A stretch of DNA of 64,000 nt, taken from assembly GCA_029238935.1 (NCBI GenBank), contig JAQZBN010000004.1:1-64000 (forward strand), read 5' to 3'. The translations under genes and the position numbers were made by a program. The notes below the pieces were generated by a model. It saw nothing but the letters and a program-made list of their open reading frames with translations, searched no databases and had not been told where the DNA came from. Source of the DNA: Herbinix sp. (GTDB lineage: Bacteria; Bacillota; Clostridia; Lachnospirales; Lachnospiraceae). Shown piece by piece: positions 7,104-56,032 of this stretch. Numbering within the stretch: the first letter of the stretch is position 1; every line of letters starts with the position of its first letter.

Positions 7104-7119
7104 GGTATCTTTATGCTTC

Positions 7120-7346: not shown

Positions 7347-7389
7347 TAAAAAACGTGCTCCCCACAGTTTTCACCTGGGAGAAGCACGA
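7347..7389 (-). terminator. Terminator after the DUF368 gene
   Basis: CGTGCTcCCCACAG and CTGGGaGAAGCACG pair with small mismatches around a short loop; six T follow on the minus strand. It lies 15 bases after the DUF368 stop. Confidence 0.8.
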
Positions 7390-7403
7390 CATTCATTCAA
7401 AGA

Positions 7404-8267: not shown

Positions 8268-8439
8268 ATATGATACACCAACCTATAGCACGTGTACCTT
8301 TACTCCTTTCAGTCATAGTTTCAATCCTCATTTACATTACCTATAATATACTATGTAAAATTGTCCTTGTAAAGAACTTCCACCTCCGAGGGACCCATCT
8401 TTCGAAAATCTTAAGAAATCTCCCGCTTTCCCTGCACTT

Positions 8440-8479
8440 AAAAAGAGCTTAACCCCTCCCCCGGTGTTAAGCTCTTTTT
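8440..8479 (-). terminator. Terminator after the first chemoreceptor gene
   Basis: A perfect 14-base stem (AAAAAGAGCTTAAC and complement) with a 12-base C-rich loop and T-runs on both strands. It lies 55 bases after the chemoreceptor stop. Confidence 0.9.
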
Positions 8480-8534
8480 ATCATCAGAAGTTTCCTTCTA
8501 GATTACAATAAGATTAGAATGTTGAAAACTCAAT

Positions 8535-30598: not shown

Positions 30599-31504
30599 TT
30601 ATTCTTTGATACTTCCAACTAACGCCCCACTTACAAAATATTTCTGAAAAAACGGATATATCACAATGACCGGCAAAACTGTAATAATAATCGAAGCATA
30701 CTTAATGGTAATCGGAACCGTTGCCTCACCACGGGACAGAGCCGCTGATATTTCCTGGCCTAACTGACTGGACAATATGATCCTTCGCAGCAGAACCTGA
30801 ACAGGTACTCTTGAATCGTCCGTCAGCAATATGCTTTCCCAGAAAAATGAATTCCACCGGGCGATTGCATAGTAAAGCCCAATTGCTGCCAGAACAGGCT
30901 TTGATAAAGGTACAACAATCTTTCGAAGAATTTGCCAGTCATTCGCCCCCTCCAGCTTTGCCGATTCCTCCAACGATAGAGGCAAACTCTGAAAATAAGT
31001 CCTGAGTATCACCACATACATTGCATTAATTGCAGGATAAAGTAAGATTCCCAGTCGTGAGTCCGTTAGCTTAAGGCTATGCATGACAAGGAAGAAAGGG
31101 ATCATACCACTGCTAAACCACAGAGTAAAGATTACCATCAACCCCATAGCCTTGTGCACTGCCCACCGCTTTTTCGATAACGGATATGCCGCCAGTATGG
31201 ATAACCCTATGCTGATGCAAGTTCCTGCCACTGTATAAAAAATCGTATTCAGATATGCACTCCAGATCCCCTTATATTTTACTACTACCTGATATGCCCG
31301 CAAGGTAAATTCACTCGGTAGCAGAACTACCTCATTTTTCATTACACTGGTAGAAGAGCTTAAGGAGGCCGACAGCAAATATAGGAATGGATATAATGTT
31401 ACGATGCATACAAATATTACGATTAAGTAACATACTGCTGCAAATAATCTTTCACCAATCACTTTATTATGATTCACAATAACCCTCTTTTCACTTGTCA
31501 CCAT
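30599..31504 (-). CDS. Sugar ABC transporter permease (LplC/YtcP type)
   Basis: A 301-residue membrane protein with about six segments. The coupling loop reads EESAKLEGANDWQILRKIVVPLSKP and the tail is GALVGSIKE. Its gene overlaps the end of the upstream permease by seven bases, so the two are translationally coupled and form the heterodimeric channel. Confidence 0.93.
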   Translation of the reverse strand: MVTSEKRVIVNHNKVIGERLFAAVCYLIVIFVCIVTLYPFLYLLSASLSSSTSVMKNEVVLLPSEFTLRAYQVVVKYKGIWSAYLNTIFYTVAGTCISIGLSILAAYPLSKKRWAVHKAMGLMVIFTLWFSSGMIPFFLVMHSLKLTDSRLGILLYPAINAMYVVILRTYFQSLPLSLEESAKLEGANDWQILRKIVVPLSKPVLAAIGLYYAIARWNSFFWESILLTDDSRVPVQVLLRRIILSSQLGQEISAALSRGEATVPITIKYASIIITVLPVIVIYPFFQKYFVSGALVGSIKE

Positions 31505-32406
31505 AATGTTGTACCATCTAACTTTCTCGTAATTTTATTCGCCGTTGCTACTAAGATAAATCCGACAACATTTTGAAATATGGTCAAGGCTTGCGTATAT
31601 CCATAACGATGATTTAAGATACCTTCCCGATAAACATAGGTATTAAATACATCCGCGGTTTCATAAACAGCTGGATTATAGAGCAGTATAAGCCGTTCAT
31701 GGCCCACATTTAATATGGATCCTAAGCTGATTAAAAACATAATTACGATGGTAGGTAATAAGCCCGGTAAGGTTATGTATAACATTTTTTGAAATTTACT
31801 GGCTCCGTCCATTGTTGCAGCCTCATATTGATCTTCCGGTATACCGGCTAAAGCAGCCATATAAACAATAGCACTGAACCCGGTTCCCTGCCATATACCT
31901 GTGCTGATAAATATTGTCCTGAAATATTGTGGGTACTGAAGAAAATAAACACTTTTCATTCCCAGCTTCGTAAGTAACATATTTACCAGCCCGGTAGGTG
32001 ATAGAAAGTTGATAACCATAGACATAACTACAACGGATGATATGAAAAATGGTAAATAGCTTATTGTCTGCGTTACCTTTTTAAATCTCTTTCGACGAAT
32101 TTCATTAAATGCAATCGCAAGTATAATAGGTAATGGAAAGCCAAAGATCAACCCATAAACATTCATCAAAAGAGTATTACGAAATAATCGAAAAAAATAT
32201 GGATCTTTAAATACCGCCTCAAAATTCTGCCATCCAACCCATAGACTATCCGAAATCCCTTTTACGATGTCATATTTTTGAAAAGCGATGATCATCCAAC
32301 CCATTGGTAAGTATGCAAATAGAATAAACCATACGAATACCGGTATAAACATTAGGTACAGCCATTTGTTTGCATGCAACTCAGCCCTGCATTTTTTTAA
32401 TAACAT
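31498..32406 (-). CDS. Sugar ABC transporter permease (LplB/YteP type)
   Basis: A 302-residue permease, first gene of the second importer operon. After a short cytoplasmic start the first segment leads into AYLPMGWMIIAFQKYD; the coupling loop is YEAATMDGASKFQKMLYITLPG. The tail ANKITRKLDGTTLW is typical for the group. The operon lacks an ATPase gene. A 12-base palindrome 27 bases before the start codon may be its operator. Confidence 0.93.
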   Translation of the reverse strand: MLLKKCRAELHANKWLYLMFIPVFVWFILFAYLPMGWMIIAFQKYDIVKGISDSLWVGWQNFEAVFKDPYFFRLFRNTLLMNVYGLIFGFPLPIILAIAFNEIRRKRFKKVTQTISYLPFFISSVVVMSMVINFLSPTGLVNMLLTKLGMKSVYFLQYPQYFRTIFISTGIWQGTGFSAIVYMAALAGIPEDQYEAATMDGASKFQKMLYITLPGLLPTIVIMFLISLGSILNVGHERLILLYNPAVYETADVFNTYVYREGILNHRYGYTQALTIFQNVVGFILVATANKITRKLDGTTLW

Positions 32407-34945: not shown

Positions 34946-35666
34946 TAAGAGCACCTTCTTCCTAACGGATGATGCATAACTTGTAGTAAAACCACTCAAC
35001 TCGATTATATAATAGCGGCTCTTATAATGATATGTAATAAATTCCTGATAATAGTAATATTTCCCCTTTTCTGTTTCTCTTCTATTTTACCATGAAGAAA
35101 CTGATCTGTCTCTTCTAATCCTTCTACAAATCAATAAATAGGGCAAAGAGAAACGTTTATAGTAAGAGGTACTTCCATCTATAAATGGGGTATCATGAAA
35201 TCGTTAAACCCATTGATTTTACTGAATTAATTCTAACTCTTTTTCGTAAAAGTAAAATTGTATCAACGTGCATTTAGGCGAGCTTTGTAAACTACATGGT
35301 AAAAGGGTAGGGGGTAATAATTTTTATGTATGGTTGAATTTCTGTAATTAATTTGACTTATATTCATCAAAACGTTGGTTATTATTTTTTCAATAGTATA
35401 TGTACTAACCTTAACCAAATTAATGATTTTATATAATTAAGAATAAGCATAATAGACTAATTTTATGATTGTTTACTTGAAATGTAAATAATTTACTAAA
35501 TTATGTATTAATTTATATGGTCCATTCCTTTAGAGATGGTAAACTTCCTATTACACCACTTATCAAACTTATTGAAGTACAGAACATGTGGTAAGTGTAA
35601 TAATCAGTTTTAGAAAACAAAAAAGAAAGCCCATAAAAATAAGGCTTTCCCATCTTTTTCACGTAC
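34946..35666. other. AT-rich noncoding region before the tRNA gene
   Basis: About 720 bases. The regulator promoter should lie near 34990-35100 on the minus strand. A 25-residue open frame at 35517-35594 is listed separately. No other element is recognised. Confidence 0.4.
35517..35594 (+). pseudogene. Possible coding remnant of 25 residues
   Basis: The frame MVHSFRDGKLPITPLIKLIE ends VQNMW and a stop. Its composition looks protein-like within very AT-rich DNA, but there is no clear ribosome binding site and no recognised family. Confidence 0.25.
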
Positions 35667-35750
35667 TGCAGTCGAGGGGACTTGAACCCCTACCCAGAAA
35701 CCCGGACTAGATCCTTAGTCTAGCGCGTATGCCAATTCCGCCACGACTGC
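35667..35750 (-). tRNA. tRNA-Leu (anticodon AAG)
   Basis: An 84-base class II tRNA gene. The acceptor stem GCAGTCG pairs with CGACTGC and the discriminator is A. The D-arm, a long variable arm and the T-loop GGTTCAAGTCC are intact. The anticodon stem CTAGA/TCTAG holds the loop CTAAGGA, so the anticodon is AAG, which reads CUU (and CUC/CUA if A34 is changed to inosine). No CCA is encoded. Confidence 0.93.
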
Positions 35751-35793
35751 AAAACTTATGTTGTTCACCTGTGATGTCTAGCGAACGAATCAT

Positions 35794-38566: not shown

Positions 38567-40117
38567 CTAATTTTTTCGTTTCCTTTGACATGCTACAAAA
38601 GCATCTCTCATGGCAGGATTATTGATTAAATTACCCTGATAATCAAACCTTGAGCCATGGCACGGGCAGTCCCAGGTCAATTCATTTTGATTCCATTCCA
38701 AACTACAGCCAAGGTGAGGACATTTAGTAGTTACGAAATAATATTTGTCATCATTATCACGATAAACACCCACTTTTTGTCCATCATGTCTTACAACACC
38801 AGCTTGCCCACGGGTGATTTCGCTTAATCTATCATGAGGAATCTTTAAGATCTCAGATAAAAGGCTTATGGTCACCACTGCGGTATCTTTTAGGAATACT
38901 TTACTGCCAGAGAGCTTCAATCTTCTTGGATTGAATACCTTCTGATACTCATTCTCTTTTCCTACAATCATATCGCTAATAATCATGGCAGATACCATCG
39001 AGGAGGACATACCCCATTTATTAAATCCAGTTGCTACATAGATATTTGGTGCCAGAGGGGAGTATCTTCCGATATAAGGAATGGAGTCCGGTGTAATACA
39101 GTCCTGGGTTGACCAAGTATACTTTATATGTGCTTCCGGGAACCATCTGGCTGCCGCATCCTCTATCTTCGCATAGAGATTCGACGGATTATGTTTTCCG
39201 GTGCGATGATAGCCGGTACCAAAGATCATATAGTTTTGATAAGTTCGGAAGGTATAGCCATAGGGATCTGCATCCAGATACATACCGTCCAAGGTCTTAT
39301 TGCAATTCTCCAATGCTGTCAGATAATGCCGTTCCTGATGAAGTTTTAAGAAATAAAAACCTGGTGCATTAATAAACGGATAGTGTGTTGCAATTACAAT
39401 CGACTTTGCTTTTACACGTCCATGCTCCGTAACTATGATACCATCATCAAGAATCTGCGTTACTCTGGTATGCTCATAAATCGTTAGTTTCTTAGCAACC
39501 GAATCCAAGAACTTCAATGGATGAAATTGAGCCTGACGGTCAAAACGTGCTGCAGCTTTTACCTCAAAAGGTAGCGTTGTATCCCTTGTAAAGGAGGCAG
39601 GAAGACCAAGTTTTCTAGCCGCATCTACTTCGTTCTTTATTTTCATCTCATCATCTAAGGTATAGATATAATTCGGCATGATCTGATAATCACAGTCTAT
39701 CTCTAATTGATTCACGATCTCTTCGTATTTCTCAATGGCTCGTTGGTTCGCTACCGCATACCCTCTGGCTCTTTCTTCCCCTTTGTAAGTAAGAAGCTTC
39801 TTATAAATCAAACCATGCTGTGACGTAATTTTAGCTGTTGTATTCTTTGTGATTCCACTTCCGGCTTCCTGACATTCCAGTAATACTACGGATATGCCTT
39901 TTTCTTGTAAAAGATATGATGTTAAAACCCCAGCAAGTCCTGCACCGATGACAGCAACCTCCGTGGTGATATTACCCTCCAGAGGCTTTCTTTCTAACTT
40001 TCCTCCTGCGATATTCGTATCCTGTTCGCGGTATTCTTTCTGTATCCAGAGAGATTCTCCTCTCTCCTGACCTGAACGTTCAAATGTTCCGTTTTCTTTC
40101 CATATCGTACCCATCAT
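38567..40117 (-). CDS. FAD-dependent oxidoreductase with C-terminal Rieske domain
   Basis: A 516-residue two-domain protein. Residues 53-430 form a DAO-type FAD domain with VIGAGLAG (56-63) and YIGRYSPLAPNIYVATGFNKWGM near the end. Residues about 430-516 form a Rieske [2Fe-2S] domain with C466-x-H468 and C484-x-x-H487 in CPHLGC and CPCHGS, all four cluster ligands intact. The same layout occurs in YhfW of Bacillus subtilis. It is soluble, with no signal peptide, and should pass electrons between FAD and the iron-sulfur cluster; its substrate is unknown. Start: GAGGTG before ATGATG. Confidence 0.9.
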   Translation of the reverse strand: MMGTIWKENGTFERSGQERGESLWIQKEYREQDTNIAGGKLERKPLEGNITTEVAVIGAGLAGVLTSYLLQEKGISVVLLECQEAGSGITKNTTAKITSQHGLIYKKLLTYKGEERARGYAVANQRAIEKYEEIVNQLEIDCDYQIMPNYIYTLDDEMKIKNEVDAARKLGLPASFTRDTTLPFEVKAAARFDRQAQFHPLKFLDSVAKKLTIYEHTRVTQILDDGIIVTEHGRVKAKSIVIATHYPFINAPGFYFLKLHQERHYLTALENCNKTLDGMYLDADPYGYTFRTYQNYMIFGTGYHRTGKHNPSNLYAKIEDAAARWFPEAHIKYTWSTQDCITPDSIPYIGRYSPLAPNIYVATGFNKWGMSSSMVSAMIISDMIVGKENEYQKVFNPRRLKLSGSKVFLKDTAVVTISLLSEILKIPHDRLSEITRGQAGVVRHDGQKVGVYRDNDDKYYFVTTKCPHLGCSLEWNQNELTWDCPCHGSRFDYQGNLINNPAMRDAFVACQRKRKN

Positions 40118-40990: not shown

Positions 40991-41019
40991 TTGAAATTAC
41001 AAATTCAGTATGTTATAAT
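40991..41019 (+). promoter_or_regulatory. Promoter of tRNA-Leu(CAG)
   Basis: TTGAAA and TATAAT separated by exactly 17 bases, 54 bases before the tRNA gene. Confidence 0.8.
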
Positions 41020-41073
41020 AAATTTCGTTCCGTATGGATACAAGTATCGTCCGTACGAGACTATGCCAGATAA

Positions 41074-41157
41074 GCAGTTGTGGCGGAATTGGCATACGCG
41101 CTAGATTCAGGTTCTAGTCCGGGTAACTGGGTAGGGGTTCAAGTCCCCTCAACTGCA
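41074..41157 (+). tRNA. tRNA-Leu (anticodon CAG)
   Basis: An 84-base class II tRNA closely similar to the Leu(AAG) gene at 35667. The acceptor stem is GCAGTTG/CAACTGC with discriminator A; the anticodon loop TTCAGGT gives CAG, reading CUG. No CCA is encoded. Confidence 0.95.
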
Positions 41158-41168
41158 TTACTAAAAAA

Positions 41169-41209
41169 CAAGACTTCCAGAGTTTCATTAACTTTGGGAG
41201 TCTTTTTTT
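41169..41209 (+). terminator. Terminator after tRNA-Leu(CAG)
   Basis: AAGACTTCCAGAGTT and AACTTTGGGAGTCTT pair around TCATT, followed by seven T. Confidence 0.9.
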
Positions 41210-41289
41210 GCCCTGGAAATTCAAATGGTAGCATTTTTCAGTTAAGAATGATAGATATCGACCAGGCAACATAAGATATTATATAATCA

Positions 41290-41317
41290 TTGCATATTCT
41301 CCCAAATATTGTATAAT
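41290..41317 (+). promoter_or_regulatory. Candidate promoter of the gene at 41399
   Basis: TTGCAT and TATAAT separated by 16 bases, about 80 bases before the start codon. Confidence 0.5.
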
Positions 41318-41398
41318 AAGATATGGGCTTATATCCCAATAATTTATTACAAGTGCTCAATTCGTTTCTTAGTATATCCATAACAAAAGAGGTATTCT

Positions 41399-41950
41399 AT
41401 GTTAGATATGTTTATTAAATGGTTCATAAATCTTAATGGAGGAGAATATATTGATTTTGCTATGCTGTCTCTAACTACTCTAGGCGGCTGTTTTGGACTA
41501 TATCAATGGTATAGATCAAATTGCATAAAAAGGGCAGAATATATCGGAAATTTACTAGAAAAACTCAGAACTGATAAAGTATTCATCGAAATATTGTATA
41601 TGTTCGACTACAATGAAGTATGGTATAATTTGGATTTCCATAAGGGTGATAATGGATTAGAACGGAAAATAGATGAGGTCCTATCCTATTTTTCATATAT
41701 GTGTTATTTAAGAAAGTCTAGAATTATTAACACAAACGATTTTAAATTTTTCAATTATGAGATTTTAAGAATTTCTCAAAGCGAATGTTTCTGCAAATAT
41801 TTGTATAATCTATATCATTTTTCAAATAAAAACAATACAATTATGTCGTTTCATTACCTATTTGAGTACTGTATTAAGAACGAAATCATCCCTAAGGAAA
41901 TTAAACAACTAAACTATTATCCTAAAAAATATAGATACCTAAACTTTTAA
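41399..41950 (+). CDS. Hypothetical protein with one membrane segment
   Basis: A 183-residue protein with AAAGAGGT before its ATG. Residues about 18-38 (FAMLSLTTLGGCFGLYQWY) form a membrane anchor; the remainder is a soluble, Tyr-, Phe- and Asn-rich helical domain. The gene is very AT-rich, more so than neighbours such as the ATPase gene at 44772, and lies directly after a tRNA gene, which fits acquired DNA. It resembles in layout the single-pass phage- or island-borne proteins of the DUF4760 kind, but no family can be claimed. Confidence 0.6.
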   Translation: MLDMFIKWFINLNGGEYIDFAMLSLTTLGGCFGLYQWYRSNCIKRAEYIGNLLEKLRTDKVFIEILYMFDYNEVWYNLDFHKGDNGLERKIDEVLSYFSYMCYLRKSRIINTNDFKFFNYEILRISQSECFCKYLYNLYHFSNKNNTIMSFHYLFEYCIKNEIIPKEIKQLNYYPKKYRYLNF

Positions 41951-42010
41951 CAAACTTCTTATATAAATTAGCATACATAAAATCAATATCAGTAAATACG
42001 GAGGAATTTA

Positions 42011-42628
42011 ATGTCTACTTATATATTACCCTTAGGTATTAGAATACCAAATGATGATGAGTATCCCAGTACTTATAATGTAAAAGAGATAAATAATAAA
42101 AGGAATATGGCAAATATTATCGAGGGATATACATTACAGAAATCTGAAGACCAAAAGTATACCCACTATTTTGAAATTAATATTGACGGAGATAAGGTTT
42201 GGGATTTTTTTATTGCAGCAACTAATAAAATTATTGATAATATCGCCTATGGAATTATTGGTCTAAGAGAGGAAGAGCCTAAATTAAGTAGATTTACAAC
42301 AAAAGAAAATGTAATTAAAGCATTTAAAGACTATGCTTTTGAGCTAACAAACGATGGATTTTTAGAATTTGGTATAGCAAATTATGATGATACTTCATTA
42401 AATGAAATTTTTGCATCTAGCTTTAAATATATTAAAATATGGACAAATAAATTAACCTTCCTTCTTGAAACTTTAAGTTCATTTGGAATACAGCATATAG
42501 AAAATCTTCAATTTATAGATGAATTTCCGGTTGTATCAGAGGCACTTACTGATAAAGTGAATGGAGTTACTCCTTATACAGAAGTGAAAGAGATAATAGA
42601 ACAGAGATTTGAAAGTTTTAAAAAATAA
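42011..42628 (+). CDS. Hypothetical protein
   Basis: A 205-residue soluble, acidic protein with GGAGG before its ATG. It begins YILPLGIRIPNDDEYPSTYN and has the segment YTHYFEINIDGDKVWDFFIAATNKII. There is no signal peptide, membrane segment or nucleotide-binding motif. It lies 60 bases after the gene at 41399 on the same strand and is similarly AT-rich, so the two may be an acquired pair. No family is recognised. Confidence 0.6.
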   Translation: MSTYILPLGIRIPNDDEYPSTYNVKEINNKRNMANIIEGYTLQKSEDQKYTHYFEINIDGDKVWDFFIAATNKIIDNIAYGIIGLREEEPKLSRFTTKENVIKAFKDYAFELTNDGFLEFGIANYDDTSLNEIFASSFKYIKIWTNKLTFLLETLSSFGIQHIENLQFIDEFPVVSEALTDKVNGVTPYTEVKEIIEQRFESFKK

Positions 42629-42701
42629 CATAACACATGATATCTTTATTAAAATGATTTTTTCTTGACACATACTTCACTCAAATACATTAAGTAAAAT
42701 C

Positions 42702-42730
42702 AAAGCTTTCAGAGTTATTAACTTTGAAGC
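42702..42730 (+). terminator. Terminator after the hypothetical pair
   Basis: AAAGCTTTCAGAGTT and AACTTTGAAGCTTT pair with a one-base mismatch or bulge around ATT, followed by ATTTTTTA. Confidence 0.75.
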
Positions 42731-42832
42731 TTTATTTTTTATTTAATTTTTTGACAACTTCTTTACTTCTTCCTTTACAATCAAAAATATTTTTTACATT
42801 ATAACCTACAAGAAAATATGTTCGGCATCACC

Positions 42833-42861
42833 TTGCCTAATAGTTTTTGTTGTTGTATAAT
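42833..42861 (+). promoter_or_regulatory. Candidate promoter of the TerB-ATPase-helicase operon
   Basis: TTGCCT and TATAAT are separated by exactly 17 bases. Transcription would start near 42868, giving a leader of about 145 bases. Confidence 0.6.
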
Positions 42862-42903
42862 ATAGTAAATTTATTTTTAATTAAATTCCAACCTCTCAAC
42901 GCT

Positions 42904-42927
42904 GATCAACCGGTTATACCGTTGGTC
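42904..42927. promoter_or_regulatory. Inverted repeat in the leader of the TerB operon
   Basis: GATCAACCGGT and ACCGTTGGTC form an imperfect inverted repeat (one extra base, one wobble) around TAT, about 36 bases downstream of the predicted transcription start. It could be a repressor operator or an RNA hairpin. Confidence 0.4.
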
Positions 42928-43014
42928 AACTTGATGAGTTCCTTCATACAACAAATACACGTACTGTTTTCCACTTGCTTAATCTTTTATTATTACTTAC
43001 AGGGAGGTGGTTAG

Positions 43015-44769
43015 ATGAGCGAATCAATCAATCACGAGCCATATAAAATTCCGGCTAGAAACTCAAACAAAGCATATGAAGCCGGTTTCCAATTATCCGA
43101 ACTCGCTTCAAATAAAAAAGCACCTGACTCTGTTTCTTTTGAGCCACAATTCTTTGCCGAGATTGAAATTGACAGTGCAATAAACACCTCATTTAAACCT
43201 GCACCTGTTCCTCCTCCAACGCATCCGGCAATGGACGAAAAACGCAGGATATTTAAGTCAATGAGGGAACTTTCCTGGTCCAATCACTCCAGTTCCTATC
43301 AAAATGCAAATTTTTATAATAAGCAAATGCAAAATGAAAATTCACGAATTTTCTATAAACAAGCAGTCTTTATGAAAGACTTTGAGGATGATTTTACCGA
43401 GACTTTTCCATTTTCAGCCTACTTTCCCCATTATCAATTGATGAGCTACGAACAGCTCAGGACCTATTTTACCTGGAGGACAAAGGTAAGAAATGGCTAC
43501 ATCGGGGAGACTTCTCTTTCCTATGTGTTTGTTTATATTTATGAGTTACTGAATAATATCGGTGTAAATGATCCTGCTGACGGACTGAATGAAATGATAT
43601 CTTTTTGGAATGTCTATAAGTTTTATGATACAACGATTGAGAAATATCTGTTGAAATGGATCAAGGATTATTATATCTACTATCGGCTGCCGAAGCCCTT
43701 TCAAGAATTCCTATGTGAAAACAGATTGCAAAAATACTATTCGAATATTGTAGAGTATGAACCGGATGTAAATTTTGATTTTGAATATGTAAGCGATCTA
43801 TCAAAATATAAAATCAAACAATCCTCATTTTATAATGAGCAAACAAACCAATTGATCAGAGATTGTTATAATTTTGTGCTAAGCAAATTAAAAAACCTAT
43901 TAAAAGATGTGGGTATAGAATTTAAGGACTTAATTCTACAACCCTCCAAGAGCAAATCTGTTTGGACACCCTTTCGAGGAGCATTATTTTACTCAACCTT
44001 ACAACAACCGGATAGACAGGTAGTTCTCTCAGAAAATGAAGTATATCTATGTAGTCAAAATACATGGTATCTCGGTACGATTACTACGTTAGAAAGTGGC
44101 AAGCATCTGATCGGTTACATTTTAAAGCACATGGAAGCAGTTTTGCGGAAGATTACAAATTATAAGAAAAAACTGTCTGCCAACCTTAATGCAGTCAATG
44201 ACGAAATCCAGCAAAAGTTCAGTGCTGCAGGAATTTCTCTTGAAGAGGTAATCACAGAAGCTGTCCAAGAATTTTATAGAGAAAAGAATAAAATCGTTAT
44301 ATCGGTGAGTGCATCCGCCCTAGATAAAATCAGGTTGGATGCACTGGGCACTCAGGAAAAGCTGATTGTACCTGAGAATGATAACATTATTCTGGATTTA
44401 GGTTCTTTTATGGAAGCTTTACCCATGAATGAAGAAATGAAGGAACCAAAGGAATCCACTTTTCAGTCTGAAGACAAGGAGATGGACATACCTACTTTGG
44501 CTCCCTCTCATTCCTCTGCTTTCACCGATGGTTGGACAAGCTTAAAAAAAGCTTTAAGCGAAACCGAACGAAATGCGTTGTCAGCCTTGTTACAAGGTAA
44601 CAAGGATATCAAGCAATTTGCAGATAATCATGGGGTTATGCTTGAAGTGCTGGCTGACAGTATTAACGAAAAAGCGTTTGACCATATAGGTGATAATATT
44701 CTGGGATTGGATGATACTATGACCTTATATGACGAGTATAGAGAAAAAATAATAATAATGGTGGAATAA
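43015..44769 (+). CDS. TerB-N / TerB-C domain protein
   Basis: A 584-residue soluble protein, first gene of a three-gene operon, with GGGAGGTGG before the ATG. After a 75-residue Pro-rich start, residues about 90-300 match the TerB-N domain (SYEQLRTYFTWRTKVRNGYI, YVFVYIYELLNNIG, YLLKWIKDYYIYYRLP). The final 100 residues (LSETERNALSALLQGNKDIKQFADNHGVMLEVLADSINEKAFDHIGDNIL) match TerB-C. TerB-N/TerB-C proteins are known from predicted stress-response and phage-resistance neighbourhoods, where they occur with DUF2791 ATPases and superfamily 2 helicases, as here. Its biochemical role is unknown; it may be a metal-sensing or scaffolding subunit. Two bases separate it from the ATPase gene. Confidence 0.85.
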   Translation: MSESINHEPYKIPARNSNKAYEAGFQLSELASNKKAPDSVSFEPQFFAEIEIDSAINTSFKPAPVPPPTHPAMDEKRRIFKSMRELSWSNHSSSYQNANFYNKQMQNENSRIFYKQAVFMKDFEDDFTETFPFSAYFPHYQLMSYEQLRTYFTWRTKVRNGYIGETSLSYVFVYIYELLNNIGVNDPADGLNEMISFWNVYKFYDTTIEKYLLKWIKDYYIYYRLPKPFQEFLCENRLQKYYSNIVEYEPDVNFDFEYVSDLSKYKIKQSSFYNEQTNQLIRDCYNFVLSKLKNLLKDVGIEFKDLILQPSKSKSVWTPFRGALFYSTLQQPDRQVVLSENEVYLCSQNTWYLGTITTLESGKHLIGYILKHMEAVLRKITNYKKKLSANLNAVNDEIQQKFSAAGISLEEVITEAVQEFYREKNKIVISVSASALDKIRLDALGTQEKLIVPENDNIILDLGSFMEALPMNEEMKEPKESTFQSEDKEMDIPTLAPSHSSAFTDGWTSLKKALSETERNALSALLQGNKDIKQFADNHGVMLEVLADSINEKAFDHIGDNILGLDDTMTLYDEYREKIIIMVE

Positions 44770-44771
44770 AG

Positions 44772-46088
44772 ATGGCGAATCAAGTACCGTTGCGAATAGC
44801 AAATATTTTAATAAATGCACTGAAAGGTGGCGTTGTGCCCCGTGTTGGTCTGGAGTATATTACCGTGGGACGAACGCAGGAAATTGCGGCAATTTTACAT
44901 GATATTGATATGATAACGGCGGGCGGAGCATCGTTCCGCTTTATTGTAGGTAAATACGGTAGCGGAAAGAGCTTTTTACTGCAAACCATCCGGAATTATG
45001 CTACTGCAAAAGGCTTTGTCGTAGTTGATGCTGACCTTTCGCCTGAGCGACGCTTTGCAGGAACCAAGGGTCAGGGGCTCGCCACCTACAAGGAGTTGGT
45101 TCAAAACCTTTCCACAAAGTCAAAGCCAGACGGCGGTGCTTTGCCGCTCATTCTGGAAAAGTGGATCTCCGGTATTTTGTCCTCTGTTAAGACTCAAACT
45201 GATGCAGAGGGTGATGAATTTAACCTTTTAGTAGAAAAGCAAATCTATGCCATGACAGAAACCCTGGAAGGAATGGTCAACGGCTTCGAGTTTGCTAAAG
45301 CCATAGTCACCTACTGGCGTGCTTACCGCGAGGATGATGCTGCTATGAAATCCAATGTTTTAAAGTGGTTCCGAGGTGAATACACCTCCCGCAAAGAGTC
45401 CAAAGAGGATTTGAATATTAACTTTATCGTCACTGACGAAACCTGGTACGATTTTTTAAAGGTTCTTGCAGTTTTCTTGGTGAATGCCGGATATAAGGGG
45501 ATGCTTGTGATCATTGACGAGCTGGTGAATATTTTTAAAATTCCAAACTCTATCACTAGGCAAAATAATTATGAGAAGATTTTGACCATGTACAATGATG
45601 TTTTGCAGGGAAATGCAAAACATATCGGCTTTTTAATGGGCGGTACTCCGCAGTGCATTGAGGATAAATATAAAGGTGTTTTCAGTTATGAAGCCCTGCG
45701 TTCCAGACTTGCGGAAGGTCATTTTGCTACTGACAATTTAAAGGATTTGTCTGCTCCTATCATACGATTGCCTATGCTCACTCAAGAAGAGATGTACGTT
45801 CTAGTTGAAAAATTACGTGACATACACTCTCAGCTTTACAATTATGAGCCGTCAATCGGTCATGACGAACTGGTTTATTTCCTTACAGTAGAATATAACC
45901 GGGTAGGAGCCAAAACCCATATTACACCTCGAGAAATTATCCGTGACTTTATCGAGTTGGTGAATATCATTCATCAAAATCCACAGATCAGCGTAGCAGA
46001 GATTTTAGGGAGCAATAACTTCCAGATGGCAAAGGGTGGAGTAACAGAAGAAGAAATTCACGCTGATTTTCTGGAATTTGAGGTATAA
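44772..46088 (+). CDS. BrxC/BrxD-type P-loop ATPase (DUF2791)
   Basis: A 438-residue ATPase. The N-terminal VVPRVGLEYITVGRTQEI leads to Walker A GKYGSGKS (60-67), and Walker B is MLVIIDEL (244-251). GFLMGGTPQCIEDKYKGVFSYEALRSRL contains the sensor and arginine-rich region. The C-terminal THITPREIIRDFIELV is typical of the DUF2791 family that includes BrxD of BREX systems. Here no BREX methylase, phosphatase or PglZ gene is present. It sits two bases after the TerB gene and about 95 bases before the helicase gene, so an ATPase-helicase complex recruited or regulated by the TerB protein is likely. The gene is more GC-rich than its neighbours to the left. Confidence 0.88.
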   Translation: MANQVPLRIANILINALKGGVVPRVGLEYITVGRTQEIAAILHDIDMITAGGASFRFIVGKYGSGKSFLLQTIRNYATAKGFVVVDADLSPERRFAGTKGQGLATYKELVQNLSTKSKPDGGALPLILEKWISGILSSVKTQTDAEGDEFNLLVEKQIYAMTETLEGMVNGFEFAKAIVTYWRAYREDDAAMKSNVLKWFRGEYTSRKESKEDLNINFIVTDETWYDFLKVLAVFLVNAGYKGMLVIIDELVNIFKIPNSITRQNNYEKILTMYNDVLQGNAKHIGFLMGGTPQCIEDKYKGVFSYEALRSRLAEGHFATDNLKDLSAPIIRLPMLTQEEMYVLVEKLRDIHSQLYNYEPSIGHDELVYFLTVEYNRVGAKTHITPREIIRDFIELVNIIHQNPQISVAEILGSNNFQMAKGGVTEEEIHADFLEFEV

Positions 46089-46184
46089 GTAGTTTGCGAA
46101 TATGCTTATTTCTACCAGTTAAGTACTCTGGACTAATTTTAACAGATAATTAATATGCCGCTGTAATGGCAAATGGAGGCTAAT

Positions 46185-48386
46185 ATGGATGTTTTTAATC
46201 GACTTGCCCCTTTCATACAGGATTTTATTTATCAAAGTAATTGGGAGGAACTGCGTGGGATACAGGTGGCGGCTTGTGAAGTGATTTTCGACAGTGACGA
46301 GAATCTTTTACTATCGTCCGGTACAGCCTCGGGTAAAACTGAAGCGGCTTTCCTGCCGGTACTAACCGAGCTTTATCAGAAGCCTTCACGATCTGTTGGT
46401 GCGATGTATATATCTCCTCTGAAAGCACTGATCAACGATCAGTTTAAAAGGCTGGAGCAGCTTCTTATGGATTCTAATATTCCGATATGCAAGTGGCATG
46501 GGGATGCATCAGTAACGAAAAAGAATGATCTCATCAAGCATCCGCAAGGAATTTTACAAATCACCCCTGAATCCCTAGAAAGCCTCCTTACCAATAAACG
46601 CGGTGCTTGTCTGCAGCTTTTTTCCGACCTAAGATTTATTATCATCGACGAGGTACATCAATTCATGCGTGATGTGCGAGGTGTGCAGCTTCTGTGTCTG
46701 TTGGAGCGGTTGCAAATTCTAACAGGAAATATCCCTAGGCGTATCGGGCTTTCCGCTACCCTTGGAGATGTATCATTAGCTCAAACCTGGTTAAACACAG
46801 GCTCCGGTCGTACCTGTGCTGCTCCAATCACGGAAGAGGGAAAAAAACGCATTAAGCTGCATATTGAGCGTTTTGTTAATCTCCATGACCAGCGCGATGT
46901 GGCTAACAGCGATGCCAGCGACAACACCATCGGTACCGGCGGTGATATGGGTAATCGGGAGCATTATGAGTATCTTTTTAAGATGACTCTGGACAAGAAA
47001 ACCATCATCTTTACCAATAGCCGTGAAGAAACCGAGTATGTTATTGCTAATTTAAAAGAAATTGCGATCAAGAACAAAGCTCCGGATGTGTACCGAGTAC
47101 ATCACGGTAATGTTTCTGCATTAATCAGAGAAAATACAGAGGACGAAATGAAATCTGCTGACGAAAAGATTGTCACAGGCGCTACGGTGACGCTGGAGCT
47201 TGGTATCGATATTGGATCCCTGGATCAGGCAGTTCAGGTTGGTGCACCTTTATCAGTCTCTAGCTTTGCACAACGCCTAGGACGATGCGGCCGCCGCGGA
47301 CAGATACCACAGCTTCTGTTTACCTTTGTAGAGGATATTCGGATCAATTCCGCAGATACCTTAGGACCGATTAACTGGGACTTTATCCGGACCATCGCAA
47401 TTATTGAGTTATACACAAAGGATCATTGGATCGAACCGATCTATCCGCATCACCATGCTTATAATCTATTATATCATCAAACCATGAGTCATCTAAAAAG
47501 CAGTGGCGAGCTTTCCCCAGCAGGACTTGCTCAGACTATGCTATCCCTAGGTTGCTTTCAGCATATCTCACAGAATGATTATAAGCATTTACTAACTCAC
47601 CTCATCGATATTGAACAATTGCAACGTACCGAACATGGTGGACTTATCATCGGTCGTGAAGGGGAAAAGATTGTTAACAATCATCATTTCTTAACGGTAT
47701 TCCTAGCACCGGAATATCTACTGGTAAAGGATGAGAACCGAACAATCGGTACAGTAGATAAGGTATACCCGATAGGTATTCGCTTTGCCCTTGCAGGTTT
47801 GACCTGGGAGACGGTTGACGTTAACATAAAATCAAAAGTTATCTTTGTAAAAAGAGTGCCGGGTATTTCCGTGGTCGACTGGAACGTGGATTTTGATGCT
47901 GAGCTACACACCATTCTGGTACGTAAAATCCGCAGCATTTTAAAAACCGATCTACCATATCCTTATTTAAGCGAACGATGCCGTGAGAGATTAATTCAAA
48001 TACAATATATTGCACGCAACAGCGGCATTTTGGATTCATTAATTACACCGCTTTCTGATAAAAAATTCGCTGTATTTCCATGGGTAGGAACACGTCAGCT
48101 GCTTACACTGCATTATGCGCTGATGAGCAGAAAAATTAAGAATAAGCTACCTTGGATCACTTGTGTATATCTGGAGGTGAACTTTAACGGAACCGCGGAG
48201 GAGCTTGAGAACATCATAAAGGATATCTTACGTTCCGATTTAGATTTATACACTCTACCATTACCGGATAAGATTCAAGTCGACGGAAAGTATAACGAAT
48301 TTATACCAATCGATCTACTGCGAAAGCAATTTATAGAGGATTTCTTGGATTTTGAGGGACTGAGAAATAGTATTATCATAGATTAA
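46185..48386 (+). CDS. Lhr-like superfamily 2 DEAD/DEAH helicase
   Basis: A 733-residue helicase. The chosen start MDVFNRLAPF has GGAGG five bases upstream; the ATG four codons earlier overlaps that site. Motif I is SGTASGKT (45-52), motif II DEVH (155-158), motif III SAT (190-192), and motif VI QRLGRCGRR (363-371), all intact. The C-terminal half resembles the Lhr/BrxHI accessory region (VDVNIKSKVIFVKRVPG). Lhr-type enzymes move 3' to 5' on single-stranded DNA or RNA:DNA. It is the last gene of the TerB-ATPase-helicase operon and probably acts on invading or damaged DNA. Confidence 0.9.
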   Translation: MDVFNRLAPFIQDFIYQSNWEELRGIQVAACEVIFDSDENLLLSSGTASGKTEAAFLPVLTELYQKPSRSVGAMYISPLKALINDQFKRLEQLLMDSNIPICKWHGDASVTKKNDLIKHPQGILQITPESLESLLTNKRGACLQLFSDLRFIIIDEVHQFMRDVRGVQLLCLLERLQILTGNIPRRIGLSATLGDVSLAQTWLNTGSGRTCAAPITEEGKKRIKLHIERFVNLHDQRDVANSDASDNTIGTGGDMGNREHYEYLFKMTLDKKTIIFTNSREETEYVIANLKEIAIKNKAPDVYRVHHGNVSALIRENTEDEMKSADEKIVTGATVTLELGIDIGSLDQAVQVGAPLSVSSFAQRLGRCGRRGQIPQLLFTFVEDIRINSADTLGPINWDFIRTIAIIELYTKDHWIEPIYPHHHAYNLLYHQTMSHLKSSGELSPAGLAQTMLSLGCFQHISQNDYKHLLTHLIDIEQLQRTEHGGLIIGREGEKIVNNHHFLTVFLAPEYLLVKDENRTIGTVDKVYPIGIRFALAGLTWETVDVNIKSKVIFVKRVPGISVVDWNVDFDAELHTILVRKIRSILKTDLPYPYLSERCRERLIQIQYIARNSGILDSLITPLSDKKFAVFPWVGTRQLLTLHYALMSRKIKNKLPWITCVYLEVNFNGTAEELENIIKDILRSDLDLYTLPLPDKIQVDGKYNEFIPIDLLRKQFIEDFLDFEGLRNSIIID

Positions 48387-48658: not shown

Positions 48659-48691
48659 AACTCTCGTCGAATTTACGACGGGAGTTTTTTT
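48659..48691 (+). terminator. Terminator of the T-box-like leader
   Basis: AACTCTCGTCG and CGACGGGAGTT pair over 11 bases with one G-U pair, followed by seven T; CTCGTC..GACGGGAG is the usual T-box terminator wording. An upstream GTCGTAAAT (48634-48642) can pair instead with ATTTACGAC (48671-48679), giving a competing antiterminator. Confidence 0.85.
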
Positions 48692-52345: not shown

Positions 52346-53146
52346 ATGGAGAACTCAAAACTGCTTGAACTGATTAAAAATACTCCCAATGCGATTTTCT
52401 CTATCCCAAATCCTACGGATGAGATGAAGCTAATTGCACTTAAAAACAACGGACTTATGCTGGAATATATTAATCCTCCAACAAGAGAAATGCAAGTGAT
52501 TGCACTAGAAAACAATGCTCGTGCAATTAAATTCATCCCTGATCCGACGGAAGAAATGATGATTAAAGCAATCCAGGGCGGTTGGACCAACTTAGAGTAT
52601 ATCAAGAATCCAACAAATAAAGTTCTTGAATTGGCAATAGGACAAGCTGGTTGGGCGATCAAGTATGTGAAGGATCCCAGTGAGGAATTGCAATTATTAG
52701 CAGTAAGAATCAATTATGATTCGATCAAGTTTATCAAAGATCCTACTGAGAGGACACAGCAAGAGGCTGTTTCCATCAATTATGAAGCCCTGCGATTTAT
52801 AAATTCACCTACTTATGCGACGGAGCTAGCTGCGATCAAGAACAACGAGCGGGCTATCAAGTTTATTAATGATATCGATCGGAATAAAATATTAGAATTT
52901 CTAAGAATAAATTTTCTCGTGATTAAATATGTGATGTATGATATTTCGAAAGAGGATCTGGAACAGGTATTAAAAGAAGTCTTATCAAAGGAAGACGTTG
53001 AAGCAACTTATGTTAGAGATTTCTTAAATTATAACACGATTGATGATAGTTACATCAATCGAATGGATAAGATCCTGTTGATTTACACATACGGAAGTAA
53101 AAAGGCTAAAAGAATCGCTGTCGATGAAAAGCTAAAGATAATATAG
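52346..53146 (+). CDS. DUF4116-type repeat protein
   Basis: A 266-residue soluble protein. Residues about 15-180 hold seven tandem repeats of 23 residues with the pattern (Y/F)I-x-x-PT-x-x-x-x-x-x-A-(I/V)-x-x-N-x-x-(A/L)-(I/L)-x, for example KFIPDPTEEMMIKAI. This matches the DUF4116 repeat, predicted to form a helical solenoid for protein binding. The last 85 residues are not repetitive. AAAGGAA precedes the ATG. It is followed 10 bases later by the MoxR-type ATPase, so it is likely an adaptor for that machine. Confidence 0.8.
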   Translation: MENSKLLELIKNTPNAIFSIPNPTDEMKLIALKNNGLMLEYINPPTREMQVIALENNARAIKFIPDPTEEMMIKAIQGGWTNLEYIKNPTNKVLELAIGQAGWAIKYVKDPSEELQLLAVRINYDSIKFIKDPTERTQQEAVSINYEALRFINSPTYATELAAIKNNERAIKFINDIDRNKILEFLRINFLVIKYVMYDISKEDLEQVLKEVLSKEDVEATYVRDFLNYNTIDDSYINRMDKILLIYTYGSKKAKRIAVDEKLKII

Positions 53147-53156
53147 GAGTGGAACA

Positions 53157-54284
53157 ATGAATTTTATAGATACCTTAAAGAGTATTGAGTTAGTACTCTC
53201 CACGGGAGAAGTCCCTTTAATCGTTGGGGAGAGCGGCATAGGAAAAACTGCGCTAGCCAAGGAAATTGCGAAAAAAAATGCTTGGAGTCTTATTGTTATC
53301 GATGGAAATCTCCTAAAAGAAGGTGAAATCGGTGGACTTCCAACGATAGAAACTTATGTAGGAGTCAATGAGAAGGGCGAAACTCTGGAAAAGAAAACCA
53401 CCGTATATGCGGTTCATAATAAACTAAGGGAAATTGACGAAGAGCTATCCAAGGGGAATACGGTTCTTTTATTTATCGACGAGATCAATCGTTGTGAACA
53501 TACGGTACAGCAGGAGCTGATGAATCTTATATTAAATAGAGAAATTAATGGTTATAAAATATATGAAGGTGTTAGAATCCTGGCTGCTATGAATCCTTCC
53601 GGCAAATATGGCTCTGATTTCGATTACCAGGTTGTGGATATGGATGCAGCACAAGAAAACCGATTTGTATGGTTGTCGATGGAGCCGGATTACTTGCAGT
53701 GGCTTGATTGGGCAGTCCATGCAGAAATCGATCAAAAGGTGGTTGATTTCATCTCAACCTTCCCGGAATATTTACATAAAACAAACGATGATGATATCAG
53801 AGCAACCCCCAGAAGCTATGAACGAATTTCTAAGGCTTATAAGATTTACAAAGAACAGACAGACTCCATCCCCAGATCCATCTTTATAAACGTGGTCAGA
53901 GGAAATGTAGGTAAATTCATTGCACAGGAGTTTGTAAGCTTTGTTGAGTCGGATTATAGCCCACTACTATCCTATGAGGATATCTTCCTCGGGGAATCTC
54001 TTTCGGAAACTCTGATGGATAAAATACAAAAAGAAAGTCATACCAGACTTTATTTAGCCTCTAAAAACATATTAAAGCGGTTAGAAGAAACGATTAAGAT
54101 TGATTCTAACGAAGCTACCGGTTTCATACATCGATTAATTGAATTCTTAAAATTATATCCGGTAGACCTAAGAGTCGGAATCATGAAGGATACCAAGAAT
54201 AGCTTTCCAAACGTCTATCAGTATGCCATCGAAAATGAAGCTTTTGTAGAATTGTACTTTGAGGCATACTCTTATATTCATTAA
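53157..54284 (+). CDS. MoxR-type AAA+ ATPase
   Basis: A 375-residue AAA+ protein. Walker A is GESGIGKT (24-31), Walker B is LLFIDEIN (104-111), and ILAAMNPSGKYG contains the sensor 1 Asn. ATPRSYERISKAY is the sensor 2 region. MoxR ATPases act as chaperones that load metals or remodel targets with VWA-domain partners; such a partner is encoded downstream. Ribosome binding site AGGAG. It probably forms a hexameric ring that acts on the VWA protein. Confidence 0.9.
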   Translation: MNFIDTLKSIELVLSTGEVPLIVGESGIGKTALAKEIAKKNAWSLIVIDGNLLKEGEIGGLPTIETYVGVNEKGETLEKKTTVYAVHNKLREIDEELSKGNTVLLFIDEINRCEHTVQQELMNLILNREINGYKIYEGVRILAAMNPSGKYGSDFDYQVVDMDAAQENRFVWLSMEPDYLQWLDWAVHAEIDQKVVDFISTFPEYLHKTNDDDIRATPRSYERISKAYKIYKEQTDSIPRSIFINVVRGNVGKFIAQEFVSFVESDYSPLLSYEDIFLGESLSETLMDKIQKESHTRLYLASKNILKRLEETIKIDSNEATGFIHRLIEFLKLYPVDLRVGIMKDTKNSFPNVYQYAIENEAFVELYFEAYSYIH

Positions 54285-54610
54285 TATACAATTCATATTT
54301 GGCACCTATAAATACTGGTTTCACTACTAATTTGATAACTTTGCTCTGGAGCCAGCAACTATTCTTTACAAGAAAAATCATCTTACGATTGATTTAGCTT
54401 ATTATGTTTATTTAGCCTATAATTTAACTTTACTTATTATATTAATTATAGCTTATTATGCTCATGTTCTTATGTTAAGTGTAGTTTGTTATACTAAGAT
54501 AGCTGTAGGTAGACATAAGATAGGAAGATTGTAAAACCACTTTCAATTACCAATCCATCCTCTTTATCAAATTATATTCTACCCACATCATCACGGACGG
54601 AGGTTTACCT
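54285..54610. other. Gap inside the MoxR-VWA operon
   Basis: About 325 bases, strongly AT-rich, with repeated TTTAGCTTATTATG / TTAGCCTATAATTT words. A 67-codon open frame without an ATG at its start (54331-54534) would read as a hydrophobic segment. No terminator is seen. Confidence 0.35.
54331..54534 (+). other. Open frame without start codon, hydrophobic
   Basis: A stop-free frame reads FDNFALEPATILYKKNHLT and then a 30-residue membrane-like stretch (LAYYVYLAYNLTLL..). There is no ATG or ribosome binding site near its beginning; it may be a remnant or a by-product of the AT-rich repeats. Confidence 0.2.
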
Positions 54611-56032
54611 ATGGAAACTTATTTTGATCACCAAGCCAATGAGTTATTGGATAAAGCATATAAGATTATTCAATCTGATCGAGAACAAAATCAAACCAAC
54701 AGAAATTCCAAACTAACGATCCCTGCTGATTTTGCGAAGGAATTTTACAGTCTAATTGATAGAGTTACTCTTAGCCTAATGGAAGATAAAGATAATTTCT
54801 ATGGGTACTTTGTATTTCAAATATCAAGAGATATTCGATTTGATATCAGCAGTCCAACTGCTGTCAATTTCATAGGCGCTAGCTATGTGATCTATTATAA
54901 TCCGATCCTTTTTCTTAATCTTACGATGAGACAGATGGAAAGTTCCATGAAGCATGAGATACTCCATATCGTATCCATGCATCTGAAGCGTGCGAAAGAG
55001 TTTCAGAGAAAATACTCTAATCTTGCCATCAATATGGCAATGGATATCGTCGTAAATAAATACTTAAACCACCTGCCACCCTACGCTACTACTTTGGAGT
55101 GGGTCAACTTACATTACAATTTAAACCTAGAACCCTATGCTTCTTTTGAATATTATGTGGAAAAGCTTCAAGCTGCCATAGATCTGATTGACGATGATGA
55201 AAATGCATCTGAGGATGATAATAACGACGAAAATAACGATGATTGCATAGAAACCATAGAAACTGAGTACAATGCAGCTAAAACCCATGCTATTTGGAGT
55301 GAATTAAACGATATCGACGAAAGTACATTGCAGCTATTTACAGAAAAGGTAATTGAGGCTTCCGAAAAGGGTGAAATTCCAACTTATCTAAAAAATATGA
55401 TATCCTCTCTAAAAAACTCCAAGGGTGAATTGCCATGGAATTTATACTTAAAACGATTGATGGGAACAGTTGAGAGCAATAAAAAGAAAACCGTGACTAG
55501 GCGGAGTCGAAGGCAGCCCGACCGATTGGATCTTAGAGGTGAACTTAGAAGTCATAAAGCAAATGTCATTGTTGCTATTGATATTAGCGGAAGCATAAGC
55601 GATGAAGAATTTAAGCAGGCTATGAAGGAAGTCCTGGCTATTGTAAAAAACTATAATCATGAAGTGACTGTTATAGAATGTGATAGCGATATTAGACATG
55701 TATATAAAGTAAAATCGATAAAGGATATCAAGGATCGAACCAACAAAAGAGGTAGTACCAGGTTTAGCCCTGTCTTTGAATATGTAAACCACCATAAAGG
55801 GAATTTACTAGTATATTTTACCGATGGAAAAGGGGAAGAAAGGCTTTCTATCCTCCCCAGAGGATATCAAATATTATGGGTTATCTCCGGAAGAGGAGAC
55901 AAACTTTCCTTAAAAGAACCTTATGGTGCAGTAAAAAAACTAAGTCATGTTGAAATAAAAGAAGATATCTTAGATAGTACTGATGTTGCAAGTGGTGGCT
56001 TTTCAATGAATTATCAAGAAAAAATCATATAA
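54611..56032 (+). CDS. VWA-domain protein with HEXXH metallopeptidase-like domain (DUF2201-like)
   Basis: A 473-residue soluble protein. Residues about 35-160 form a metallopeptidase-like domain with H115-E-I-L-H119 in MKHEILHIVSMH, a likely zinc site. An acidic linker (about 193-212, DDDENASEDDNNDENNDD) leads to a helical middle part. Residues 315-470 form a VWA-like domain with the MIDAS motif DISGS (324-328), ending in a Gly-rich tail. The combination matches DUF2201-type predicted metallopeptidases, which usually pair with MoxR ATPases as here. The target and proteolytic activity are unknown. GGAGG precedes the ATG. Confidence 0.85.
   Translation: METYFDHQANELLDKAYKIIQSDREQNQTNRNSKLTIPADFAKEFYSLIDRVTLSLMEDKDNFYGYFVFQISRDIRFDISSPTAVNFIGASYVIYYNPILFLNLTMRQMESSMKHEILHIVSMHLKRAKEFQRKYSNLAINMAMDIVVNKYLNHLPPYATTLEWVNLHYNLNLEPYASFEYYVEKLQAAIDLIDDDENASEDDNNDENNDDCIETIETEYNAAKTHAIWSELNDIDESTLQLFTEKVIEASEKGEIPTYLKNMISSLKNSKGELPWNLYLKRLMGTVESNKKKTVTRRSRRQPDRLDLRGELRSHKANVIVAIDISGSISDEEFKQAMKEVLAIVKNYNHEVTVIECDSDIRHVYKVKSIKDIKDRTNKRGSTRFSPVFEYVNHHKGNLLVYFTDGKGEERLSILPRGYQILWVISGRGDKLSLKEPYGAVKKLSHVEIKEDILDSTDVASGGFSMNYQEKII

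What the first reader, a model, noticed from the sequence alone, without database searches (positions are those of the whole stretch)
42833..48386. TerB - DUF2791 ATPase - Lhr-like helicase cassette
Three adjacent genes code for a TerB-N/TerB-C protein, a BrxC/BrxD-type ATPase and an Lhr/BrxHI-like helicase, with a promoter and an inverted repeat in front and a gap of only 2 bases between the first two genes. All ATPase and helicase motifs are intact. BREX uses related ATPase and helicase subunits, but here PglX, PglZ, BrxA and BrxB are absent, so this is not BREX. Associations of TerB domains with such enzymes were predicted computationally; an experimental role for this exact trio is not known to me. 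It is the best candidate for an undescribed defence or DNA-repair system in the window.
Basis: partly seen in the sequence, partly recalled or inferred. Interest (0 to 1): 0.78.

Follow-up and report, generated by a model that had tools for sequence, protein, structure and literature searches.

The report
Shango anti-phage operon in a Lachnospiraceae
The three genes are a complete copy of Shango, a known bacterial defence against phages, so the finding is real but not new; related copies add a few clues to how this still unexplained system may work.

Summary
The trio exists as described and is Shango (SngA, SngB, SngC), a known three-gene anti-phage system. PADLOC's Shango models win for all three proteins (E 1.5e-69, 4.8e-178, 3.8e-218), above BREX models; no PglZ was found in the genome.

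It is accessory: strong SngB matches in 31 of 299 family genomes, its own included; order A-B-C in 68 of 80 related loci. It lies 1.9 kb past a tRNA-Leu; in 8 relatives with the same tRNA pair no Shango gene was found in the stretch held.

Clues: SngA is less conserved than SngB and SngC in 1326 of 1326 pairs (medians 42.5, 82.6, 78.6%); SngB/SngC motifs are nearly invariant; the SngA C-terminus is weakly predicted to be a winged helix; 7 of 56 loci have a LexA/CI-like gene upstream, the window does not.

Most likely mechanism, inferred: SngB loads or gates the SngC helicase on phage DNA, with SngA as adaptor or sensor.

The parts
43015..44769 (+). sngA: TerB_N (residues 104-265) and TerB_C (419-579) protein, 584 aa
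   Evidence: PADLOC SngA PDLC03958 E 1.5e-69; Pfam TerB_N 9.6e-31, TerB_C 1.6e-16
44530..44766 (+). SngA residues 506-584: predicted winged helix (four helices, two-strand wing, helix)
   Evidence: AlphaFold2 of residues 499-584, mean pLDDT 88.2; Foldseek lists mostly LysR/ModE/MarR-type regulators, prob up to 0.92 but best E 0.17: weak
44772..46088 (+). sngB: BrxC/BrxD-family AAA+ ATPase, 438 aa
   Evidence: PADLOC SngB PDLC03959 E 4.8e-178 against BrxD 2.8e-48; Pfam PF10923 1.3e-159; Walker A codons 44949-44972, Walker B Asp-Glu codons 45516-45521 (from residue numbers)
46173..48386 (+). sngC: SF2 helicase, BrxHI/Lhr-like, 737 aa
   Evidence: PADLOC SngC PDLC03960 E 3.8e-218 against BrxHI 3.6e-115; motif I codons 46317-46340, DEVH codons 46647-46658 (from residue numbers)
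42833..43014 (+). leader: promoter-like site 42833-42861, imperfect hairpin 42893-42938, ribosome-binding-like GGGAGGTGG
   Evidence: promoter and hairpin are not clearly above chance; the ribosome-binding site was seen by eye
48659..48686 (+). terminator-like hairpin (11 pairs) followed by a run of T, about 270 bp past sngC
   Evidence: the consensus scan found 8 sites against 5.1 +/- 2.6 in shuffles
41074..41157 (+). tRNA-Leu (CAG), edge of the conserved left flank; the variable region holding Shango begins after it

Best explanation
The locus is a complete Shango anti-phage operon (sngA-sngB-sngC) carried as accessory DNA beside a tRNA-Leu in what is probably a Lachnospiraceae genome. Shown here: family membership, intact active sites, co-inheritance as a unit, patchy distribution. 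Shown by others for relatives: protection against phages. Inferred: SngB forms an ORC/Cdc6-like AAA+ assembly that loads or licenses the SngC helicase on invading DNA; SngC then moves along it and blocks or dismantles replication; SngA, with its predicted C-terminal winged helix, is the adaptor or sensor that decides where or when the pair engages. My confidence is about 0.97 for 'it is Shango' and about 0.35 for this mechanism; the figure below is a compromise.
For: PADLOC best hits for all three proteins are SngA, SngB and SngC. The order A-B-C on one strand holds in 68 of 80 loci found with SngB (partial copies counted), 56 of them with both gaps under 300 bp. Distances of the three proteins correlate (A-B 0.73, A-C 0.70, B-C 0.83; 0 of 2000 permutations reach any). 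The published Shango of Sulfitobacter faviae plasmid 4 (gene coordinates in a table passage) is, at those same coordinates, a TerB, ATPase, helicase trio in this order; by sequence I compared only its SngB, 39.5% identical. Johnson 2023 reports 10-100-fold lower plating of many, not all, phages tested and protection in liquid (passages). BrxD is classed as an ORC-Cdc6 AAA+ ATPase and proposed to load or activate BrxHI (PMC12839542, passages); SngC groups with BrxHI, DruE and DpdJ (PMC12278908, passages), which are also the next PADLOC hits here. SngB and SngC are far more constrained than SngA.
Against: No phage test of this copy exists to my knowledge. No DNA-binding or loading assay is known to me for any Shango. 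The winged-helix call has no Foldseek match at E below 0.1, and the whole SngA model has none at E 0.001. The asymmetry of conservation could be plain relaxed constraint on a scaffold protein; dN/dS of SngA stays well below 1, so no positive selection was seen. 12 of 80 loci lack A or C; 3 of these 12 (L065, L099, L111) are explained by contig ends, L063 only for its missing A. The genome is listed with 8.08% contamination, so the host assignment is not beyond doubt.
Confidence: 0.6

Rival explanations
1. SngA is the effector: SngB and SngC sense unusual DNA ends or replication intermediates and release or activate SngA, which stops the cell (abortive infection, as in Hachiman, where the helicase HamB restrains the nuclease HamA).
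For: SngA is the only subunit without a recognised engine and evolves fastest. Hachiman sets a precedent for helicase sensor plus effector (start of the abstract of PMC12278908 as listed).
Against: No nuclease or other enzyme family was found in SngA by PADLOC, Pfam or NCBIfam nor by fold search (no match at E 0.001). [quoted passage not shown]
Confidence: 0.2
2. The trio is a DNA-repair or housekeeping set, not a defence system.
For: The best solved relatives of SngC are two 'ATP-dependent DNA helicase' chains, 5v9x and 7lhl (that these are Lhr proteins is recalled), and it matches a ligase-associated damage-response helicase model at 200.5 bits against a cut-off of 850. In 7 of 56 loci a LexA/CI-like gene sits upstream.
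Against: Patchy: strong SngB match in 31 of 299 genomes of the family and strong SngC match in 8 of 41 relatives; other contigs and flanks in the genus; broken remnants in a relative, G312; phage protection shown for relatives.
Confidence: 0.03
3. A reduced BREX type 2 locus that kept only BrxD and BrxHI.
For: SngB and SngC are homologues of BrxD and BrxHI; BrxD and BrxHI form a tight dyad in BREX.
Against: Shango models score far higher (590.7 against 163.1 bits; 724.7 against 383.8 bits); the BrxD equivalog cut-off is not met (164.4 against 350); no PglZ match in the genome and PF10923 occurs only once, in SngB.
Confidence: 0.01

Closest known systems
Shango (SngABC)
   Same: Same three families, same order, best PADLOC hits for all three; same layout in the published Sulfitobacter faviae Shango
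   Different: Phage activity of this copy untested; SngA is divergent (234 bits, profile matched from position 81 to 524 of 528) and has a low-confidence N-terminal tail (residues 1-58)
BREX type 2 BrxD-BrxHI dyad
   Same: Homologous ATPase and helicase, adjacent
   Different: No BREX hit in the three flanking ORFs scanned; no PglZ match in the genome; scores below the BrxD cut-off
Druantia, Dpd and Hachiman helicases
   Same: SngC is grouped with DruE and DpdJ in published work (passages) and hits the DpdJ, DruE and HamB models
   Different: Partner proteins differ; SngA and SngB hit no Druantia, Dpd or Hachiman model
Bunzi and Dionysus (TerB-type defence systems)
   Same: Listed in reviews as TerB-bearing defence systems (passages)
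   Different: Not compared by sequence here

Membership tests
Shango | SngA: TerB-like protein | tested here: met
   PADLOC SngA 1.5e-69; Pfam TerB_N and TerB_C above cut-off
Shango | SngB: ATPase with intact Walker motifs | tested here: met
   PADLOC SngB 4.8e-178; Walker A: 7 of 8 residues identical in 52 of 52 trios, K61 in 50; Walker B D249 and E250 in 52 of 52
Shango | SngC: DEAD/DEAH helicase with intact motifs | tested here: met
   PADLOC SngC 3.8e-218; D159, E160, V161, H162 in 52 of 52
Shango | Three adjacent genes in the order A-B-C | tested here: met
   the same order in 68 of 80 related loci
Shango | Protects against phages | not testable with these tools
   Shown for the PA14 copy in PAO1 (PMC10250203, passages), not for this copy
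BREX type 2 | PglZ present | tested here: not met
   PF08665: no match in the genome at E 0.001; the genome is listed as 95.06% complete, so a gap cannot be fully excluded
BREX type 2 | BrxD equivalog score | tested here: not met
   164.4 bits against a cut-off of 350
BREX type 2 | PglW, PglX and BrxC beside the dyad | tested here: not met
   PF10923 (BrxC/BrxD) occurs once in the genome; no BREX hit in PADLOC for 3 flanking ORFs nor for 10 further window ORFs; the other window ORFs were not scanned, and PglX and PglW were not searched for genome-wide

The most novel reading that the evidence does not exclude
SngA is a rapidly diverging, winged-helix-bearing invader sensor that directs a nearly invariant helicase-loader and helicase engine (SngB-SngC), and in some clostridia the whole operon is held off by a LexA/CI-like self-cleaving repressor, so that Shango is switched on by DNA damage: a defence triggered by infection stress rather than always on.
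Probability: 0.2. Interest if true: 0.5.

Novelty: new member of a known kind. Interest (0 to 1): 0.2.

Why it matters
It removes a candidate 'new' system from the list and files it as Shango, whose mechanism is still listed as unknown in a 2026 review (PMC12926258, passages). The 52 trios give testable hints: which subunit varies, which residues are fixed, and a possible DNA-damage switch in a subset of loci.

Tried and rejected
BREX remnant: rejected on scores and absence of a PglZ match. Chance assembly of ORFs: rejected by the conserved order. Phage or plasmid origin: no SngB match in 50,697 phage records; no match in IMG/VR to six exact 8-residue patterns, which reaches close relatives only; 691 of 72,556 plasmid records hold a relative, all under 60% identity. 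A close relative on plasmids was therefore not found.

Integrated element: no repeat of the tRNA-Leu 3' end to the right of it was among the 40 matches printed, which all lay in the second tRNA-Leu gene at 35666-35751 (list cut at 40), and neither ORF between tRNA and sngA has a Pfam hit, so the way it arrived is unknown.

A fixed fourth gene: the ORFs at 41399-41950 and 42011-42628 have no hit in three libraries and no tblastn match at 1e-3 in the 80 loci. Of the 12 ordered loci with a gap of 300 bp or more, the gap gene of 4 was scanned with Pfam: HAD hydrolase, LRR/SUKH, and two without a hit. No recurring fourth subunit was seen.

Solved structures by sequence: none for SngB at E 0.001 or SngA at E 1.

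Selection caveat: the 80 loci were found through SngB patterns, which favours conserved SngB. But loci found through SngA in the genus show the same asymmetry (SngA about 40-62%, SngB 83-87% identity to the window in the segments matched), as do the dN/dS values of 9 close pairs, which share loci and are partly saturated at synonymous sites.
Full report
What is there. Three genes on the + strand, 43015-44769, 44772-46088 and 46173-48386, encode a TerB_N/TerB_C protein, a BrxC/BrxD-family ATPase and a DEAD-box SF2 helicase. The upstream promoter-like site and hairpin are there but weak.

What it is. PADLOC's best hit for each protein is the matching Shango subunit: SngA 1.5e-69, SngB 4.8e-178, SngC 3.8e-218. 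BREX models come second for SngB (BrxD, 163.1 against 590.7 bits) and SngC (BrxHI, 383.8 against 724.7 bits). The NCBIfam BrxD cut-off is not met, PglZ has no match in the genome and PF10923 occurs only in SngB. It is Shango, not BREX.

Host. Two same-genus genomes hold contigs whose lengths equal those of Lachnoclostridium records (77,392 and 49,393 bases), hence 'probably Lachnospiraceae'; a third has the length of a record titled Anaerolineaceae (100,116) and a fourth of one titled Clostridiales (13,162), so the titles do not all agree.

What is already known. Johnson et al. 2023 (PMC10250203, passages) describe the three-gene TerB, ATPase, helicase system in P. aeruginosa PA14, report 10-100-fold lower plating of many phages (not all that were tried) and good protection in liquid, and name it Shango; they cite an earlier report in E. 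coli that I did not see. The system has since been annotated in Sulfitobacter (PMC10221251, passages), Clostridium perfringens (PMC13251782, passages) and rumen genomes (PMC13356809, passages). A 2026 review lists its mechanism as unknown (PMC12926258, passages). Six searches of the held library listed no paper whose title concerns its mechanism; two searches listed all their papers (3 and 28), the other four only the first 20, and the library lacks most subscription papers and bioRxiv.

Distribution. In the family, 36 of 299 genomes (the window's own included) have an SngB match at E 0.001; 31 of these are strong (339 bits or more), 5 weak. Of the 29 other loci taken from that search (at most 1.5 kb of flank on each side), 24 show SngA and 26 SngC next to SngB, 22 both, at tblastn 1e-4. 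In the genus, 12 of 34 genomes match SngA, two of them (G312, G317) only by short pieces with stop codons. SngC has a match at 1e-100 in 8 of 41 relatives; G312 keeps only residues 391-733. A genome scan with SngB confirmed 116 of 130 candidate stretches; the best 80 were kept, mostly Lachnospiraceae, Oscillospiraceae and other Clostridia by record title, with single records titled Phycisphaerae, Anaerolineaceae and Coriobacteriia. Of these 80, 68 have A-B-C in order on one strand, partial copies counted; 56 with both gaps under 300 bp, 12 with a longer gap; 6 lack A (2 within 1.5 kb of a contig end) and 8 lack C (2 likewise), two loci lacking both.

Location. To the left of the trio lie an FAD/Rieske oxidoreductase gene (38567-40117), tRNA-Asn (minus) and tRNA-Leu CAG (plus). 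The oxidoreductase is found in 30 of 34 genomes of the genus. I fetched 20 stretches, 13 around the oxidoreductase and 7 around Shango, and scanned 19 of the 20 for tRNAs. Of the 12 oxidoreductase stretches scanned, 8 show the same tRNA pair. None of these 8 has a Shango gene in the stretch held, at tblastn 1e-15; two of the 8 hold under 3 kb past the tRNA. The first 160 bases after the tRNA differ by eye, except that L130 and L134 resemble each other. None of the 7 Shango stretches carries this tRNA pair. So the spot beside the tRNA is variable and Shango sits elsewhere in these relatives. In G302 (L135), homologues of window genes 52346-56032 lie about 3.3 kb from the tRNA, which suggests that the roughly 11 kb in the window holding Shango is largely inserted; no attachment repeat was found.

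Unequal evolution. From the 80 loci and the window I kept the 52 with one full-length ORF of each kind (51 of 80 loci plus the window; 29 loci dropped as partial, split or missing). Median pairwise identities are 42.5% (A), 82.6% (B) and 78.6% (C); A is below B and below C in all 1326 pairs. In 9 close pairs, dN/dS is 0.083-0.146 for A, 0.003-0.056 for B and 0.023-0.052 for C. SngA is thus under purifying selection, but 2- to 35-fold weaker than SngB in these pairs. The weakest stretches are the N-terminal tail (median identity 29%) and the linker 451-505 (19%); the helical part (49%) and the C-terminal domain (51%) are better kept. The three distance matrices correlate, so the genes travel together rather than being freely shuffled. 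Because the loci were found through SngB, its conservation is somewhat favoured (see Tried and rejected).

Structure. AlphaFold2 gives SngA a mean pLDDT of 82.5, pTM 0.59, with low-confidence tail and linker. Foldseek against PDB finds no match at E 0.001. The C-terminal piece alone (residues 499-584, pLDDT 88.2) has four helices, a two-strand wing and a last helix. Of the 50 hits listed (262 at E 10 or less), 48 are transcription regulators, one is Csa3 and one a predicted methyltransferase; the regulators are mostly of LysR type, with probability up to 0.92 and TM about 0.5, but best E only 0.17, and the output does not say which part of each target was aligned. I take this as a likely, unproven winged helix.

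A possible switch. In 7 of the 56 loci with at least 1 kb of DNA before SngA (L050, L055, L056, L058, L070, L072, L105), the gene just upstream belongs to one family. Two of the seven were scanned and match Peptidase_S24 (about 1e-18) with weak helix-turn-helix matches. All seven show Ala-Gly (SAG), Ser in SGxSM and Lys in KKLG by eye; that these are the cleavage site and catalytic pair of LexA/CI-type repressors is recalled. L046 has a CI-type helix-turn-helix gene upstream instead. The window has no such gene among the ORFs scanned upstream, so this concerns relatives only.

Mechanism. Published analysis classes BrxD as an ORC-Cdc6 AAA+ ATPase that may load or activate the BrxHI helicase (PMC12839542, passages), and another places SngC with BrxHI, DruE and DpdJ (PMC12278908, passages). 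With SngB and SngC nearly invariant and SngA variable, the simplest reading is a loader plus helicase engine guided by an adaptor. Shown: homology, intact motifs, co-inheritance. Inferred: loading, DNA target, role of SngA. The main rival is SngA as a restrained effector.

Verdict. Real, well delimited, and already a known kind. Interest 0.2, for the side clues rather than the identity.

Noticed in passing
window 52346-56032: DUF4116 protein, AAA ATPase and DUF2201 VWA-like protein in a row; homologues of the same three lie together in a relative (L135) near the same tRNA-Leu.
   Followed up: partly
window 41399-41950 and 42011-42628: Two ORFs between tRNA-Leu and sngA without a hit in PADLOC, Pfam or NCBIfam; A+T-rich (GC 0.288 in 41001-43000).
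   Followed up: partly
L058:7597-8172 and six other loci: LexA/CI-like S24 peptidase plus helix-turn-helix gene directly upstream of sngA in 7 of 56 loci.
   Followed up: partly
L081:11505-13043, L098:7260-8090, L051:3970-5274: Unrelated genes lodged between sngB and sngC (LRR/SUKH-like, HAD hydrolase, no Pfam hit).
   Followed up: partly
L150 (Sulfitobacter faviae plasmid) 6015-9826: By its annotation, a PD-(D/E)XK nuclease and a UvrD-type helicase gene follow sngC directly, perhaps an AddAB-like pair.
   Followed up: no
G312:C114 about 31036-32276: Remains of a Shango operon: an SngA piece with stop codons and the C-terminal half of SngC.
   Followed up: no
L130 and L134, just past tRNA-Leu: Similar sequences containing repeated GTAGCCA follow the tRNA in both, perhaps attachment sites of an integrated element.
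   Followed up: no
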